DNA of 64,000 bases, from NCBI RefSeq assembly GCF_003626575.1, contig NZ_RBDY01000036.1, positions 1 through 64,000 on the forward strand. The letters run 5' to 3'. This document shows positions 6,355 through 11,386 of this stretch, piece by piece. Origin of the DNA: Streptomyces radicis. GTDB lineage: Bacteria > Actinomycetota > Actinomycetes > Streptomycetales > Streptomycetaceae. Position 1 is the first letter of the stretch, and the number at the start of each line of letters is the position of its first letter. The notes beneath the pieces are model-generated. The model was given only the letters and a program-made list of their open reading frames with translations, was not told the DNA's origin and made no database searches. Made by a program: the position numbers and the translations under genes.

Positions 6355-6780
6355 TCATCGGGGCGGCCCGGCGGTGAGCCGTACGCAGGGTGAGACAAAG
6401 TCATCCGCGAAGTGATCGGCCCCGAACCCGGACGCGACCAGAACGCGCAGCACCGCCTCATTCATCGCGGCGCCGACCTCGCCGCGGCGCCGGATCAGCG
6501 GGTCGTCCATCCTGCGCTCGCGGACGCACGCGATGACCGCCTGGTTCATCTCCGCGCTGATCTTCCAGCGGGCGTAGACGCCGCCGAGCGCGTCGGCCTT
6601 GGCGTCGACCCAGACCTGCACGCCCGAGTCGCCGAACTCCTCGCGCAGCACCGGCAGTCCGGCCGCCCGCAGCGCGGCGTCCACCGCGTCGGCGAGCGCC
6701 GCCCTGGCCGCCAGCACCTCCTCGGTTGCCCTGGGGTCCCCCCCGGGCGCGGCGTCGGAGGTGTCGGATGTATCGGACAT
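6355..6780 (-). CDS. Candidate immunity protein for the RHS toxin
   Basis: A 141-residue protein directly downstream of the RHS toxin, 13 bases after its stop on the same strand. It begins with a polar, Asp/Ser-rich stretch, then is mainly helical (ALADAVDAALRAAGLPVLREEFGD, QAVIACVRERRMDDPLIRRRG, AMNEAVLRVLVASGFG). I recognise no named family. Small acidic proteins in this position are usually the cognate immunity factor of polymorphic toxins, so the role is inferred from position and size. Confidence 0.65.
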   Translation of the reverse strand: MSDTSDTSDAAPGGDPRATEEVLAARAALADAVDAALRAAGLPVLREEFGDSGVQVWVDAKADALGGVYARWKISAEMNQAVIACVRERRMDDPLIRRRGEVGAAMNEAVLRVLVASGFGADHFADDFVSPCVRLTAGPPR

Positions 6781-6793
6781 GAACGAACACTCC

Positions 6794-9700
6794 TCATCGG
6801 CCGTCGGCGCGTCGGATCATATCGGACAGCAGATCCGCGCTCGCCTGGTTCATGAGCAGCGCGTCATCGGCCGACAACGGGGGCGAGTTGTAGTAGGGAA
6901 CGGACCACGACACGTTGACCTGGCCCATGCTGGAGTCGATGAGGTTCTGGCAGTTGGCGCACGGCTGGCGCTCCGTGTAGAGGTCGATGACCCGCTGTGG
7001 GTCGATGCCGCGCTGCTCGAGCTGCTGGAGGATGTGTCCCTCGGAGTGTCTGCCCGCGCCGCTGAACCCGACGATCAGCTCGTCGAGCCCCTGCACCCGG
7101 GCGACCGCGACGTTGTGGTCGGCGTCCCAGTAGCCCGCGTTCCTGCGCTCCTGGAACGCCCGCTGGCTCAAGTCCGTGCTGTTGTAGCGGATTTCGCCGA
7201 CCGGGTGGGCCGCGAGGCCCAGCGCGTCCGACCAGGTCAGCGGATTGTGGGGATAGCCGAAGACATGGGGCGAGGGCCCGAGCCCCAGCGGGTCGGGGGA
7301 GGTGTAACGCCCGGCGAAGGGGTCGTAGTAGCGGTGCAGGTTGTAGTGCCACCCGGTCTCCGCGTCGGCGTACTGCCCCGGGAAGCGCAGCGGCATCCGC
7401 CGTGCGTCGCCCTGGAGTTGGGTGGGAACGCCCCACAGACTCGCGCGGGCGTGCCAGGCGACGGAGCCGTCCTCGTCGACGAGATGCGTCGGCGCGCTGG
7501 CCAGGTCGGTGACGATCGCGTAGAAGCGCCGGTCGAACGCGTCCTGGTCCGCGTCGGGCCCGAGGCGTTCGATCTGGGCTACGGGCCGCAGCCCGTCGTA
7601 CTCCCACGTCGTGGTCGCGGCCCCGTCGGAGGCCGACGGCGTACCGCTCCGTTGCTCGACGAGCTGCGTCTCGTCCCATGTGAACGTCGTCTCCTCGACC
7701 ACCTCGCCGCCGTCGTCGAGCCGCTGCTTCGCGACCCGGCGGCCGAAGGGGTCGTAGAGGTAGCGCCACAGGGTCCCGTCCGGCGTGACCACCCGGGCCA
7801 GCCGGTCCTCCGCGTCCCACACATAGCGCCATACATCGGGCTTGCGGGACAGCCGCGTTCGCTGCTGCTTGATGACGCGCCCTGCGTCGTCGTACCAGTA
7901 CCTGACGCCTCCGGCCCGGGTCAGCAGGCCCCCGCGATACTCCCGGTCCCCGACCGCCGTGCCCTCGACCGCCGCGCCCCCGTCGGACGACGCCGACTCG
8001 CCCCAGCGCGCGGAGAGTTGGTCGCCGACGTCGTTGTACCGGTAGCTCTCCCGGCCGTCGGGGGCCTCGACGTCCAGGACGCGGCCGACCGGGTCGAGCC
8101 GGTAACGGGTCTCGCCCGACGGCTCGGACACCGACACGGGATAGTGGTCCGCGCGGTACGCGAAGGTTCGCCGCACCATCGGCCCGCCGCCGGAGGACGC
8201 CGGGGCGCCAGGACCGGCCTGTGCCGCCCGCGCCGCCGTGACGGTCTGCTCGGTCAACCGGGCGGCGGCGTCCCAGGATTGGGCGGTGTCCAGGATGCCG
8301 AAGACGTCCTGCCCGATGAGGCGCCCCGCCGGGTCGCGGTGGAACGTGACCGTTCGCCCGGCCGCGTTCAGCGCGACGGCGCGCCCCGCCTCGTCACGCT
8401 CCCACCGGGTGACGTGCCCCGCGGGGGTGGTCCGGCTGAGCGGCCTGCCCAGCGGGTCATGAGTGAGGCTGAGCGTCCTGCCGTTGACCGTCTCGGTCAG
8501 CAGGTTCCCCAGGACGTCGAACGTGCGGACCAGCTCGACGCCGGGGGAGCGGGCGGCGACGACGCGCCCGGCCTCGTCGTACTCGAAGGTGGTGACAGCG
8601 CCCTCGGAGGTCTCCTTCCTGACCACGCGACCGGCGAAGTCCCTGGTGTAACGCACGGACTGGCCCGCCGCGTTGACGCGCGAGGTCACCCGGCCCGCGG
8701 CGTCCCGCGCGTAACGGGTGACGCGCCCGTCGAAGTCGCTCTCCGCCACCAGGCGTCCGGCCTCGTCATAGCCGAAGTCCCACGTCTCATCACGGGAGTT
8801 GCGCACGGCGGTGAGACGCAGCTCCGAGTCGCGCTCGAACGTGTAACGGCGCCCGTCGGGCCAGGACTTGGACGTCTCCAGATCGAACACGCCATAGGTG
8901 GAACGGGCCACGCCGCCGTTCTCGTCCGTCAGCTCCAGGACGTTGCCCTCCGCGTCCCGGGCCCAGGTGCGTTGACCCCCCAACGCATTGGTGACGCGGG
9001 CCGGTTGACCGTCAACGGTCCACTCCGTCGTCGTGGTCGCCCCGAGCGGGTCGGTGCGCCGCACGACCCTGCCGAAGGCGTCGCGGTCGAAGCGGGTCGT
9101 CCGCCCGAGGCCGTCGGTGACGGCCACGGGGAGTCCGGCGGCGTCGCACAAACGCCGGGTGCTGTGGCCGAGTTGGTCCGTGGTCTCGGCGGTGGCGCCG
9201 GTGGGGTGGTGGGAGAGCCGCACGACATTTCCGGCCGGGTCGGTGATCGCGACGCGATTGCCCCGGTCGTCGTGGACCTGCGCCCAGACCGAGCCGTCGG
9301 CCAGGGTCGTGCGGACGGGCTGCCCGGCGGCGTCGCGCTCCACGAACAGCTCGGTCCCGGCCGGTCCCTCGATGGCGAGGAGGTCGCCGTAGCCGTCGTA
9401 GCGGAAACGCGTGGTGGTGCCGACGGGGTCGGTGACGCCGGTGGCCCGGTCGTAGCGGTCCCACTCCCAAGCGGTCGTGTTGCCCAACGGGTCGGTCTCG
9501 GCCGTGAGTTGGAAGCTGTCGTTGAACTGGTGGACGGTGGCGTGGCCGAGGGAGTCCGTCACGGTGGTGCGGTGGTCGGCCGCGTCGTACGCGTAGTGGT
9601 ACTCCAACGCGCGCTCGGACCCGGTGGTGTGGACGCACCGCCCGTCCTCGTCGTACTCGTACGCGTACCAGTAGCCGTTGCGGTCCTCCCAGCGGGTGAT

Positions 9701-11386
9701 CCTGGCGTGGTCGTCGTAGGTGAACGTCAGTGGTAGTCCTGAGGAGTTGTGGATCTCGCTCAGCAGGCCGTTGTGGTAGTCGTAGCGGCGCAGAACGGGC
9801 CGGTCGGGGTCGTTGAGCAGGCGCAGCTCGGTGACGCGGCCGCGCTCGGTGGCGACGCCGACGCGGTAACCCCCGCTGTGGCTGACCTCGGTGGGCGCGC
9901 CCGTGGCGGGGTCGTACGCGAACCGGATGGTGTTCCCGTTCCGGTCGGTGACCGAGGCGAGGGGGAGCTCGGCGCCGGGGCGTCCGGGGACGGGGGCGAA
10001 ACGCAGCGTGTGCCCGGTCTCCCGCTGGCGCACGGTGAGCGGCGAGCCGGGCCGTCCGTCCCAGGTCAGCCCCCACCGCGGGCCCTCCACAGGGAAGACG
10101 GGCTCGTCGGGATCGGGGCGTGGGTAGAGCAGGGTCATGCCGTCGGCGGTGTGGAAACGGACACCGTGCTCGTCGAGCTCCAGCCGTTGGTCGAGGGTGG
10201 AGGCCCAGGAGCGGCCGAAGCAACGTCCGTGGCGGTGGCTGGAGATGTGGTGGCGTTCGATGATCAGTGGGAGGACGCCGGGGAGTTGGACGTCGGTGGC
10301 CGACATCAGCAGCTCGCCGGTGGCCATGTCGACGGGGTCGCCGCATGCGTTGCGGCCGTTCATGGGGACGGCGTCGCCGCGGGTGCGGCGGCCCAGGCCC
10401 AGGGCGCCCTGCCGGATGCCGCGCAGTCCGGTACGGGCCAGGCCCCTGACCCCGGCCGCCAACGCCCCCAGCGTGGTGAGGCCTTTCATGCCGGGGATGC
10501 AGTCCAGGGCTGCCATGGCGACGTCGAAGAGTGATGCCTCGCCTCTGGCGTATTTGATCAGTGTGTCGGCCAGGACGATCAGCGCGGCGGCGAGGACGAC
10601 CCAGGCCAGGGGGCCGCCGATGATCATGACGACGACGCCGAGGACGGCGACGACGAGCTTGGCGATGTCGACGATGGTGTCCCAGTTGTCGACGACCCAG
10701 TCGATGGCGTCCTCCCACCACGACCGGTTCTGGATGCCCGCGTCGGAGGCCGCCTCGATGTCACGGGCGCAGATCCGGGCGGCCTCCTCGCGCATCTCCT
10801 TGGCCTGCCGGGCCAGTTCGCGGGCGGCGGAGAGGTCGGCCTGGGCGGCGTCGACGCGGCCCTGTGCGGCGGATGCGGCGGCCTCGGCGGCGTCGTGGTC
10901 GCGCACCGCGGAGCGGATCTCGCTCTCGGAGGGCGGCTCGGGGTCCTCGCCCTCCTCCTGGAGGCGTTCGGCCTCCTCACCCGCCCGCCCCACCCAGTCC
11001 TCCGCGCCGCCCAACTCCGTCTGCGCCGCCCGCAGATCCGCCTGCGCCGCGATCGCCCGGTCCAGCGCGCGATCCGCCTGCGCCTGCGCGCGTTGCAACT
11101 CCGGCCAGTACCGCGCGAGGGCGTCGGCGGCCATGTCGTAGGACGTCTGAAGTTTGGTCAGGTTCTCGGGAACGCCGTCGAACTCCCCGCGGAACGCGTC
11201 CGCGGACAGCCCCGACCAGTCCTGCACGGCGCGGTCGGAGGCCATCCCCCGGATCTGCGACAACGCCTCCCCGACATCGTCGGCGAACTCCTGGAGATCC
11301 TCCGCCAGGGTCCGAACCTCCTCCGGATCCCCCGGAGTCGGATCCGAGTCCATGTCCACCGGCGACCAGTCAGAAGCACGAGCCAT
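6794..11386 (-). CDS. WXG/RHS-repeat polymorphic toxin with C-terminal deaminase-like domain
   Basis: A 1530-residue protein from ATG 11386. Order of parts: WXG-type helical N-terminus (VQDWSGLSADAF near 57); long heptad-rich helices to about 205; a hydrophobic segment at 243-276; a DUF6531-like domain from about 345 (CGDPVDMATGELL); many YD/RHS repeats (DEAGRV, YDPFGR); and the RHS core end near 1350-1392 (YYDPFAGRYTSPDPLGL...NPLTWSDALGLA). The final 138 residues (coordinates 6794-7210) carry HSE (1447-1449) and PCANC (1475-1479), the zinc-site signature of nucleic-acid/nucleotide deaminases. The RHS shell normally encapsulates the toxin. The WXG head suggests ESX-type (type VII) export, although no secretion genes are nearby. 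Confidence 0.88.
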   Translation of the reverse strand: MARASDWSPVDMDSDPTPGDPEEVRTLAEDLQEFADDVGEALSQIRGMASDRAVQDWSGLSADAFRGEFDGVPENLTKLQTSYDMAADALARYWPELQRAQAQADRALDRAIAAQADLRAAQTELGGAEDWVGRAGEEAERLQEEGEDPEPPSESEIRSAVRDHDAAEAAASAAQGRVDAAQADLSAARELARQAKEMREEAARICARDIEAASDAGIQNRSWWEDAIDWVVDNWDTIVDIAKLVVAVLGVVVMIIGGPLAWVVLAAALIVLADTLIKYARGEASLFDVAMAALDCIPGMKGLTTLGALAAGVRGLARTGLRGIRQGALGLGRRTRGDAVPMNGRNACGDPVDMATGELLMSATDVQLPGVLPLIIERHHISSHRHGRCFGRSWASTLDQRLELDEHGVRFHTADGMTLLYPRPDPDEPVFPVEGPRWGLTWDGRPGSPLTVRQRETGHTLRFAPVPGRPGAELPLASVTDRNGNTIRFAYDPATGAPTEVSHSGGYRVGVATERGRVTELRLLNDPDRPVLRRYDYHNGLLSEIHNSSGLPLTFTYDDHARITRWEDRNGYWYAYEYDEDGRCVHTTGSERALEYHYAYDAADHRTTVTDSLGHATVHQFNDSFQLTAETDPLGNTTAWEWDRYDRATGVTDPVGTTTRFRYDGYGDLLAIEGPAGTELFVERDAAGQPVRTTLADGSVWAQVHDDRGNRVAITDPAGNVVRLSHHPTGATAETTDQLGHSTRRLCDAAGLPVAVTDGLGRTTRFDRDAFGRVVRRTDPLGATTTTEWTVDGQPARVTNALGGQRTWARDAEGNVLELTDENGGVARSTYGVFDLETSKSWPDGRRYTFERDSELRLTAVRNSRDETWDFGYDEAGRLVAESDFDGRVTRYARDAAGRVTSRVNAAGQSVRYTRDFAGRVVRKETSEGAVTTFEYDEAGRVVAARSPGVELVRTFDVLGNLLTETVNGRTLSLTHDPLGRPLSRTTPAGHVTRWERDEAGRAVALNAAGRTVTFHRDPAGRLIGQDVFGILDTAQSWDAAARLTEQTVTAARAAQAGPGAPASSGGGPMVRRTFAYRADHYPVSVSEPSGETRYRLDPVGRVLDVEAPDGRESYRYNDVGDQLSARWGESASSDGGAAVEGTAVGDREYRGGLLTRAGGVRYWYDDAGRVIKQQRTRLSRKPDVWRYVWDAEDRLARVVTPDGTLWRYLYDPFGRRVAKQRLDDGGEVVEETTFTWDETQLVEQRSGTPSASDGAATTTWEYDGLRPVAQIERLGPDADQDAFDRRFYAIVTDLASAPTHLVDEDGSVAWHARASLWGVPTQLQGDARRMPLRFPGQYADAETGWHYNLHRYYDPFAGRYTSPDPLGLGPSPHVFGYPHNPLTWSDALGLAAHPVGEIRYNSTDLSQRAFQERRNAGYWDADHNVAVARVQGLDELIVGFSGAGRHSEGHILQQLEQRGIDPQRVIDLYTERQPCANCQNLIDSSMGQVNVSWSVPYYNSPPLSADDALLMNQASADLLSDMIRRADGR

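What the first reader, a model, noticed from the sequence alone, without database searches (positions are those of the whole stretch)
6355..11386. RHS polymorphic toxin with a deaminase-type warhead and a candidate new immunity protein
The RHS protein ends in a 138-residue domain after the RHS core boundary, with HSE (1447-1449) and PCANC (1475-1479), the pattern of zinc-dependent nucleic-acid/nucleotide deaminase toxins. Its N-terminus is WXG-like with coiled coil and a hydrophobic segment, not a signal peptide. The gene 13 bases downstream encodes a 141-residue protein I cannot place in a known immunity family. Deaminase toxins of this superfamily include cytidine deaminases acting on DNA. 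The substrate and subfamily here cannot be told by eye.
Basis: partly seen in the sequence, partly recalled or inferred. Interest (0 to 1): 0.68.

Follow-up and report, generated by a model that had tools for sequence, protein, structure and literature searches.

The report
Streptomyces deaminase toxin with matching antidote
A Streptomyces bacterium carries a large, probably secreted protein tipped with a predicted base-changing enzyme toxin, and the small gene right behind it belongs to an unnamed family that follows this same toxin tip at nearly every related locus examined, so it is very likely the antidote.

Summary
Window 6794-11386 (-) encodes a 1,530-aa WXG/T7SS-signal + RHS protein. 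Its last 138 residues are a separate tip that matches Pfam XOO_2897-deam (E 1.6e-18) and is modelled as a zinc-deaminase fold. Two paralogues in the same genome share the scaffold (67% and 57% identity) up to residue 1393/1394 and then carry unrelated tips, which fixes the cassette boundary. The 141-aa product of 6355-6780 has no Pfam, NCBIfam or PDB relative above threshold. A profile built from it and nine homologues not beside this toxin finds a family member directly behind the tip at 36 of 37 related loci (Streptomyces, Actinacidiphila, Nocardia, Amycolatopsis); at the 37th the contig ends 23 bases after the toxin. 0 of 30 control RHS-core loci have it. It follows the tip on WXG-RHS, HINT and ricin-lectin carriers alike. 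Best reading: a T7SS-type polymorphic toxin of a known deaminase family with its cognate immunity protein, from an unannotated family. Homologues without the toxin are common; one sits where an orthologous RHS gene has another tip. The substrate is unknown; toxicity and neutralisation are untested.

The parts
6794..11386 (-). RHS polymorphic toxin, 1,530 aa (P0001)
10742..11332 (-). WXG100 / T7SS_signal N-terminal domain, residues 19-215 (WSG at residue 57)
   Evidence: Pfam PF21725 1.2e-7 and PF06013 1.6e-6, both just over cut-off; WSG position
10562..10675 (-). hydrophobic stretch, about residues 238-275 (end set by eye)
   Evidence: Kyte-Doolittle scan, best 19-residue window starts at 238
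10127..10342 (-). DUF6531 domain
   Evidence: (1.7e-23)
7214..7435 (-). RHS-associated core (TIGR03696) that ends just before the tip
   Evidence: (residues 1318-1391)
6797..7210 (-). C-terminal deaminase toxin domain (XOO_2897 family), residues 1393-1530
   Evidence: PF14440 E 1.6e-18; paralogue scaffolds align only up to residue 1393/1394; AF2 pLDDT 94.3
7040..7048 (-). HSE motif: H (zinc ligand) and E (catalytic), roles by family inference
   Evidence: H and E invariant in 33 aligned toxin domains, the window plus 32 of 37 loci
6950..6964 (-). PCANC motif: the two zinc-binding cysteines, roles by family inference
   Evidence: P, C, C invariant in the same 33 domains
6355..6780 (-). cognate immunity protein, 141 aa (P0002), unannotated family
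   Evidence: homologue directly behind the toxin at 36 of 37 related loci; no match over a cut-off seen for 31 members in Pfam and NCBIfam

Best explanation
A polymorphic antibacterial toxin of Streptomyces. The WXG/T7SS-signal N-terminus takes the protein to an ESX (type VII) secretion machine. The RHS core probably holds the tip in a shell. In a susceptible neighbour the 138-residue tip, a zinc-dependent deaminase of the XOO_2897 family, removes an amino group from a base in nucleic acid or nucleotides. The gene 13 bases downstream makes an acidic alpha/beta immunity protein that probably binds the tip and blocks its active site in the producer and its kin. Shown by computation: the architecture, the modular tip, the deaminase family and predicted fold, and the tight coupling of tip and downstream gene. 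Inferred: export by T7SS, the RHS shell, toxicity, neutralisation, the binding mode. Unknown: the substrate.
For: Tip = PF14440. AF2 model pLDDT 94.3; best structural matches are zinc deaminases, blasticidin S deaminase Z 9.4, rmsd 2.3 over 89 residues. Same-genome paralogues share the scaffold and differ in the tip. P0002-family gene directly behind the toxin at 36 of 37 loci, the only miss at a contig end; the same with a profile made only from P0002 and nine homologues not beside this toxin. Three of the 37 (L081, L091, L105) are loci that supplied the query; without them 33 of 34. The best place of each of 3 plasmid records with the tip has it as well. Controls: 0 of 30 RHS-core loci carry it. 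The pair sits on WXG-RHS, HINT and ricin-lectin carriers. Toxin and partner divergence correlate, r 0.73 over 29 pairs, highest of 2,000 permutations 0.24. Two EccB genes in the genome; a WXG100 gene behind the pair in relative L080.
Against: No experiment was done. The tip is acidic overall (pI 5.0), so nucleic-acid binding is not obvious. P0002-family genes without this toxin are common: 19 of 27 confirmed members among 30 P0002-seeded loci show no toxin in the locus, about 1.5 kb each side or less, and two plasmid members have none within 4 kb. At one tip locus (G141) the partner is SUKH-4 instead. The toxin-partner correlation is expected of any linked genes with shared history. The WXG100 and T7SS_signal scores are only just over cut-off. 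No complex was modelled. Z 9.4 is not far above the level at which the tool warns of merely common arrangements.
Confidence: 0.88

Rival explanations
1. P0002 is not immunity but a chaperone or secretion partner of the RHS toxin.
For: It is small and acidic and sits directly behind the toxin gene; a T7SS nuclease has small partner proteins that aid its export (abstract start in a search listing).
Against: It follows the tip, not the carrier: present with RHS-, HINT- and ricin-type carriers, absent from 30 of 30 control RHS-core loci, 29 of them read for 1,500 bases behind the core and one (L157) for 776. The stretches held behind the two same-genome paralogues gave no hit to the profile.
Confidence: 0.07
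2. The tip is a nucleotide or nucleoside deaminase (for example acting on a free nucleotide pool) and not a DNA or RNA mutator.
For: Structural matches are led by small-molecule deaminases (blasticidin S deaminase, cytidine deaminases); the tip is acidic, pI 5.0.
Against: Deaminase toxins from three other families mutate DNA (passages of PMC7901873); TadA-like nucleic-acid deaminases are also among the structural matches. Over 29 tips the pI ranges from 4.7 to 9.1.
Confidence: 0.3
3. The P0002 family is a general actinobacterial protein, sometimes adopted as immunity, whose main role lies elsewhere.
For: 19 of 27 confirmed members in P0002-seeded loci have no toxin in the locus; some sit in similar neighbourhoods in more than one genome; two plasmid members have no tip within 4 kb.
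Against: When the search starts from toxins, the partner is present at 36 of 37 loci. One member without the toxin sits behind an RHS gene whose orthologue bears the deaminase tip, which fits orphan immunity. In 197 class-level genomes the family profile matched only 5 (a capped first look, so a lower bound).
Confidence: 0.15

Closest known systems
XOO_2897-like deaminase toxins (Pfam PF14440)
   Same: The tip scores 67.1 bits against a cut-off of 27; H-x-E and PCxxC present; carried by polymorphic toxins.
   Different: In the passages seen of Zhang et al. 2012 (PMC3482391) this family is named with SUKH immunity. Here the partner is a different, unannotated family.
DddA (SCP1.201 family) and SsdA (BaDTF2) interbacterial deaminases
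   Same: Deaminase-superfamily warhead; SsdA with an immunity protein over its active site (passages of PMC7901873).
   Different: Other families; listed as T6SS effectors (passage); substrates known (dsDNA, ssDNA), here unknown.
Streptomyces umbrella toxin UmbC1
   Same: Streptomyces polymorphic toxin with a deaminase tip and an immunity gene right downstream (passages of PMC11062931).
   Different: ALF-repeat umbrella particle with TAT signal and an Imm1 partner; here WXG-RHS with a new partner family.
XOO_2897-deam + SUKH-4 systems
   Same: Same deaminase Pfam family, fused to SUKH-4 in this genome (L129) and beside SUKH-4 in L040.
   Different: SUKH-4 is not among the families listed for P0002 or for the 31 family members.

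Membership tests
XOO_2897-like deaminase (PF14440) | Pfam score over the curated cut-off | tested here: met
   67.1 bits vs 27, E 1.6e-18
XOO_2897-like deaminase (PF14440) | H-x-E and P-C-x-x-C zinc/catalytic motifs, conserved | tested here: met
   H, E, P, C, C invariant in 33 domains, the window plus 32 of 37 loci; some relatives have one residue more between the cysteines
XOO_2897-like deaminase (PF14440) | cytidine-deaminase-like fold | tested here: met
   AF2 pLDDT 94.3; top PDB rows nearly all zinc deaminases, Z 9.4, rmsd 2.3 over 89
XOO_2897-like deaminase (PF14440) | deaminase activity, zinc binding, substrate | not testable with these tools
   needs a bench assay
Polymorphic toxin (RHS type) | constant scaffold with exchangeable C-terminal tips | tested here: met
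   two same-genome paralogues, 67% and 57% identical up to residue 1393/1394, other tips
Polymorphic toxin (RHS type) | cognate immunity gene directly behind the tip | tested here: met
   as genomic coupling: 36 of 37 loci, 0 of 30 control loci; neutralisation itself not tested
T7SS (ESX) substrate | WXG100/T7SS signal domain | tested here: met
   just over cut-off
T7SS (ESX) substrate | export machine in the genome and actual export | tested here: inconclusive
   two EccB genes found; other components were not searched and export is not shown
SUKH immunity | Pfam SUKH match of the partner protein | tested here: not met
   no SUKH match for P0002 nor among the 17 families listed for 31 members at E <= 1
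SCP1.201/DddA deaminase (PF14428) | Pfam match of the tip | tested here: not met
   not listed for the tip at E <= 1; 0 matches in the own genome (whose control genomes did not ring either)

The most novel reading that the evidence does not exclude
P0002 founds a new immunity family specific for XOO_2897-type deaminases. In actinobacteria it takes the place of the SUKH partner, works by its own fold as a deaminase inhibitor, and also spreads as orphan immunity that protects strains without the toxin. The tip would then be a base-editing enzyme of a class for which I saw no assay, with a ready-made natural inhibitor.
Probability: 0.55. Interest if true: 0.6.

Novelty: new variant of a known kind. 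Interest (0 to 1): 0.45.

Why it matters
Deaminase toxins from three other families mutate DNA (passages). I saw no assay of the XOO_2897 family in the listings, but a screen of over 200 deaminase proteins from InterPro (Huang et al. 2023; known to me only through a commentary) may have included it. This locus and its relatives give a defined set of toxin-partner pairs for testing substrate and inhibition. A natural protein inhibitor of a deaminase is a useful reagent. The homologues without the toxin let one test how immunity outlives toxin swaps.

Tried and rejected
PDB sequence searches with tip and partner gave only chance-level matches (best E 1.6 and 0.1). The partner's predicted fold (pLDDT 89.6) had no PDB match below E 0.4 by Foldseek; VIA-align best Z was 5.8, to phage lambda tail terminator gpU, a middling value the tool warns about; the viral library gave nothing at E <= 0.001 (best 0.017). 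I therefore name no fold and do not claim a new one. A padloc scan gave one weak match for the RHS protein (LeoBC, 9.5e-5, residues 68-273, in the helical N-terminal part) and none for P0002; not pursued.

DUF6891 matched 2 of 31 partner proteins, best E 2.6e-5; the one row seen is under its cut-off, 24.6 vs 27 bits. A remote tie is possible and was not pursued. The other weak hits seen (LytR_C and so on) were below cut-off.

Class-level search with the partner profile: 5 of 197 genomes; at most 21 candidates per genome were scored, so this is a lower bound. Besides the window, L160 (another family) also has the tip; L162, L163 and L164 show none in about 1.5 kb each side.

P0002 against plasmids by tblastn: 2 records, with 70% and 57% of the query covered, neither among the 3 plasmid records that have the tip. 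Both are true family members by profile and have no tip within 4 kb. The 3 tip records have 5 places in all; I looked at the best place of each.

Rows dropped: 3 of the 30 P0002-seeded loci (L022, L028, L029) did not match the family profile and were treated as chance. Of 11 tip matches with E below 1e-6, 10 have a family member behind them and G141 has SUKH-4 instead. The 37 loci come from 35 genomes (two loci each from Streptomyces sp. CB02261 and S. lavendulae). The mirror-tree test used 29 pairs: the window and the 28 loci present in both alignments A4 and A6. A4 holds P0002 and 30 of the 36 partners; left out were L084 and L106 (longer fusions), L088 (split over two frames), L101 and L109 (near or exact copies) and L108 (no start found). 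A6 holds the window and 32 of 37 tips; left out were L098, L101, L108, L109 and L114. Control loci: 30 loci, the best match of each of 30 of the 61 genomes searched; L157 is cut 776 bases behind the core, the others hold 1,500.

Paper searches: XOO_2897 + deaminase, 3 papers; PF14440, no occurrence in the ten listed papers; structure-based deaminase clustering; interbacterial deaminases, Rhs, T7SS and Streptomyces; 'nucleotide deaminase domain-containing', no occurrence in the eight listed. None of the listings, abstract starts or passages I saw describes this partner family. Iyer et al. 2011, which I recall as the founding paper of the family, is not held, Huang et al. 2023 was not read, and subscription journals are mostly absent, so prior description cannot be excluded.

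Full report
The thing itself. On the minus strand, 6794-11386 encodes a 1,530-residue protein and 6355-6780 a 141-residue protein, 13 bases further on. The large protein has a WXG100/T7SS-signal N-terminus, DUF6531, RHS repeats, an RHS-associated core ending at residue 1391, and a C-terminal tip. The genus is Streptomyces by inference: genome G180 is marked 'same genus' and its 209,069-base contig with this pair has the length of the Streptomyces olivaceus contig with the same pair.

The tip is modular. The window's genome has two more proteins that are 67% and 57% identical to it from residue 1 up to 1393 and 1394, and then differ. One of those tips resembles YwqJ deaminases below the cut-off (E 0.0023), the other matches nothing in Pfam at E <= 0.5. 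This is the mark of a polymorphic toxin: constant carrier, exchangeable warhead.

The tip is a deaminase. Pfam XOO_2897-deam scores 67.1 bits against a cut-off of 27. In 33 aligned tips (the window plus 32 of 37 loci) the H, E, P, C and C of the two motifs never change. The AlphaFold2 model has pLDDT 94.3. Its best solved matches are zinc deaminases: blasticidin S deaminase, cytidine and dCMP deaminases, TadA (best Z 9.4, rmsd 2.3 over 89 residues; Foldseek best E 2e-4). Zinc geometry was not measured, because no model coordinates were laid in the script box (file listing).

The neighbour is tied to the tip. A scan of the genome-contig collection with four tip sequences gave 37 loci from 35 genomes: Streptomyces, Actinacidiphila, Nocardia and Amycolatopsis. 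A profile of the P0002 family found a member directly behind the tip at 36 of 37; in L096 the contig ends 23 bases after the toxin. That profile contained some of the same loci, so I repeated the test with P0002 plus nine homologues that do not sit beside this toxin: again 36 of 37, one gene per locus (split over two frames in L088), in 406,662 bases, and all 37 frames start no more than 150 bases past the toxin's end on its strand. Three of the 37 loci (L081, L091, L105) had supplied query sequences; without them it is 33 of 34. The best place of each of 3 plasmid records with a matching tip has the partner as well. As a control I took 30 loci at RHS cores, the best match of each of 30 Streptomycetaceae genomes: 0 of 30 have the partner, 0 of 30 have this tip; 29 hold 1,500 bases behind the core, one only 776.

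It follows the tip and not the carrier. The same pair is found on the window's WXG-RHS protein and, among 8 relatives scanned, on HINT proteins, a ricin-lectin protein, and proteins with no other Pfam domain. Tip and partner divergence go together, r 0.73 over 29 pairs against a permutation maximum of 0.24; linked inheritance alone could give this.

Members without the toxin. Of 30 P0002-seeded loci in the family, 27 hold a true family member; 8 have the deaminase in the locus, 19 do not. Twelve of these 19, and one further member, were also looked at in wider stretches of 9.5 to 15 kb, and none had the tip there. Two plasmid members have no tip within 4 kb. One case is telling. Loci L080 and L076 are the same chromosomal site: flanking proteins 82-100% identical and RHS scaffold 62% identical up to residue 1393/1366. 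In L080 the tip is the deaminase; in L076 it is another, unnamed tip; both have the P0002-family gene, 65% identical, in front of the same downstream WXG-type genes. Other members without the toxin, for example in L074 and L075, remain unexplained.

The partner family is unannotated. For 31 members no match over a cut-off was seen in Pfam or NCBIfam; full rows were shown only for P0002 and the members scanned singly. In one annotated plasmid the toxin is called 'nucleic acid/nucleotide deaminase domain-containing protein' and the partner 'hypothetical protein'. The model (pLDDT 89.6) is alpha-beta-beta-alpha-alpha-beta-beta without a clear structural relative.

How it most likely works. The WXG-type N-terminus and two EccB genes in the genome suggest type VII export; a WXG100 gene lies behind the pair in L080. 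The tip would deaminate a base in a neighbour's nucleic acid or nucleotides, and P0002 would block it in the producer. Export, toxicity, substrate and blocking are inferred. Deaminase toxins known to mutate DNA belong to other families (passages of PMC7901873). The tip's acidity (pI 5.0; 4.7 to 9.1 over 29 tips) leaves a nucleotide substrate open.

Compared with what is known. Zhang et al. 2012 name SUKH proteins as immunity to XOO2897 deaminases (passages), and this fits two other proteins seen here (L129, L040). The window pair uses a different partner. I call the toxin a member of a known family and the pair a new variant. Iyer et al. 2011 is not held, so an earlier mention of this partner cannot be ruled out.

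Noticed in passing
L129 945-3122 (-), own genome contig C10: A 725-aa protein fuses an XOO_2897 deaminase (E 6.5e-37) to a SUKH-4 immunity domain (E 7.3e-50), toxin-type and antidote-type domains in one chain. Weak tip matches over the same stretch, often in frames of 700-1,000 aa, are common among the 149 of 200 Streptomycetaceae genomes with any match and may be its orthologues; not checked one by one.
   Followed up: partly
L124 512-5032 (+), own genome contig C4: A paralogous WXG-RHS protein (67% identical) ends in another deaminase-like tip with CAEI and PCPDAC motifs (YwqJ, E 0.0023, under cut-off) and has an unnamed 129-aa reading behind it.
   Followed up: partly
L125 2481-7381 (-), own genome contig C1: A second paralogous WXG-RHS protein (57% identical) with a tip of no Pfam family and an overlapping 129-aa downstream gene, a candidate unknown toxin-immunity pair.
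   Followed up: partly
L076 8052-8414 (+): Unnamed RHS tip that stands where the related locus has the deaminase; by eye it recalls ADP-ribosyltransferases, but Pfam finds nothing at E <= 0.5.
   Followed up: partly
L107 and L109 (Streptomyces lavendulae CCM 3239): Toxin-immunity copies with identical printed tips and partners lie about 190 kb from each end of the chromosome in opposite orientation, which fits terminal inverted repeats.
   Followed up: no
L084 6520-7668, L106 6664-7677, L063 3526-4923 (-): P0002-family proteins with an extra C-terminal part of about 200 aa or more; no Pfam match over cut-off in the two scanned, L084 and L106.
   Followed up: no
L074 4739-5571 (-), L075 4766-5230 (-): P0002-family genes (two in tandem in L074) in a similar neighbourhood in two genomes of the window's genus, without the toxin in 15 kb.
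   Followed up: no
L168 3920-4393, L169 3863-4282: P0002-family genes annotated 'hypothetical protein' on two Streptomyces plasmids, no deaminase tip within 4 kb; an IS21 transposase gene overlaps the end of one.
   Followed up: partly
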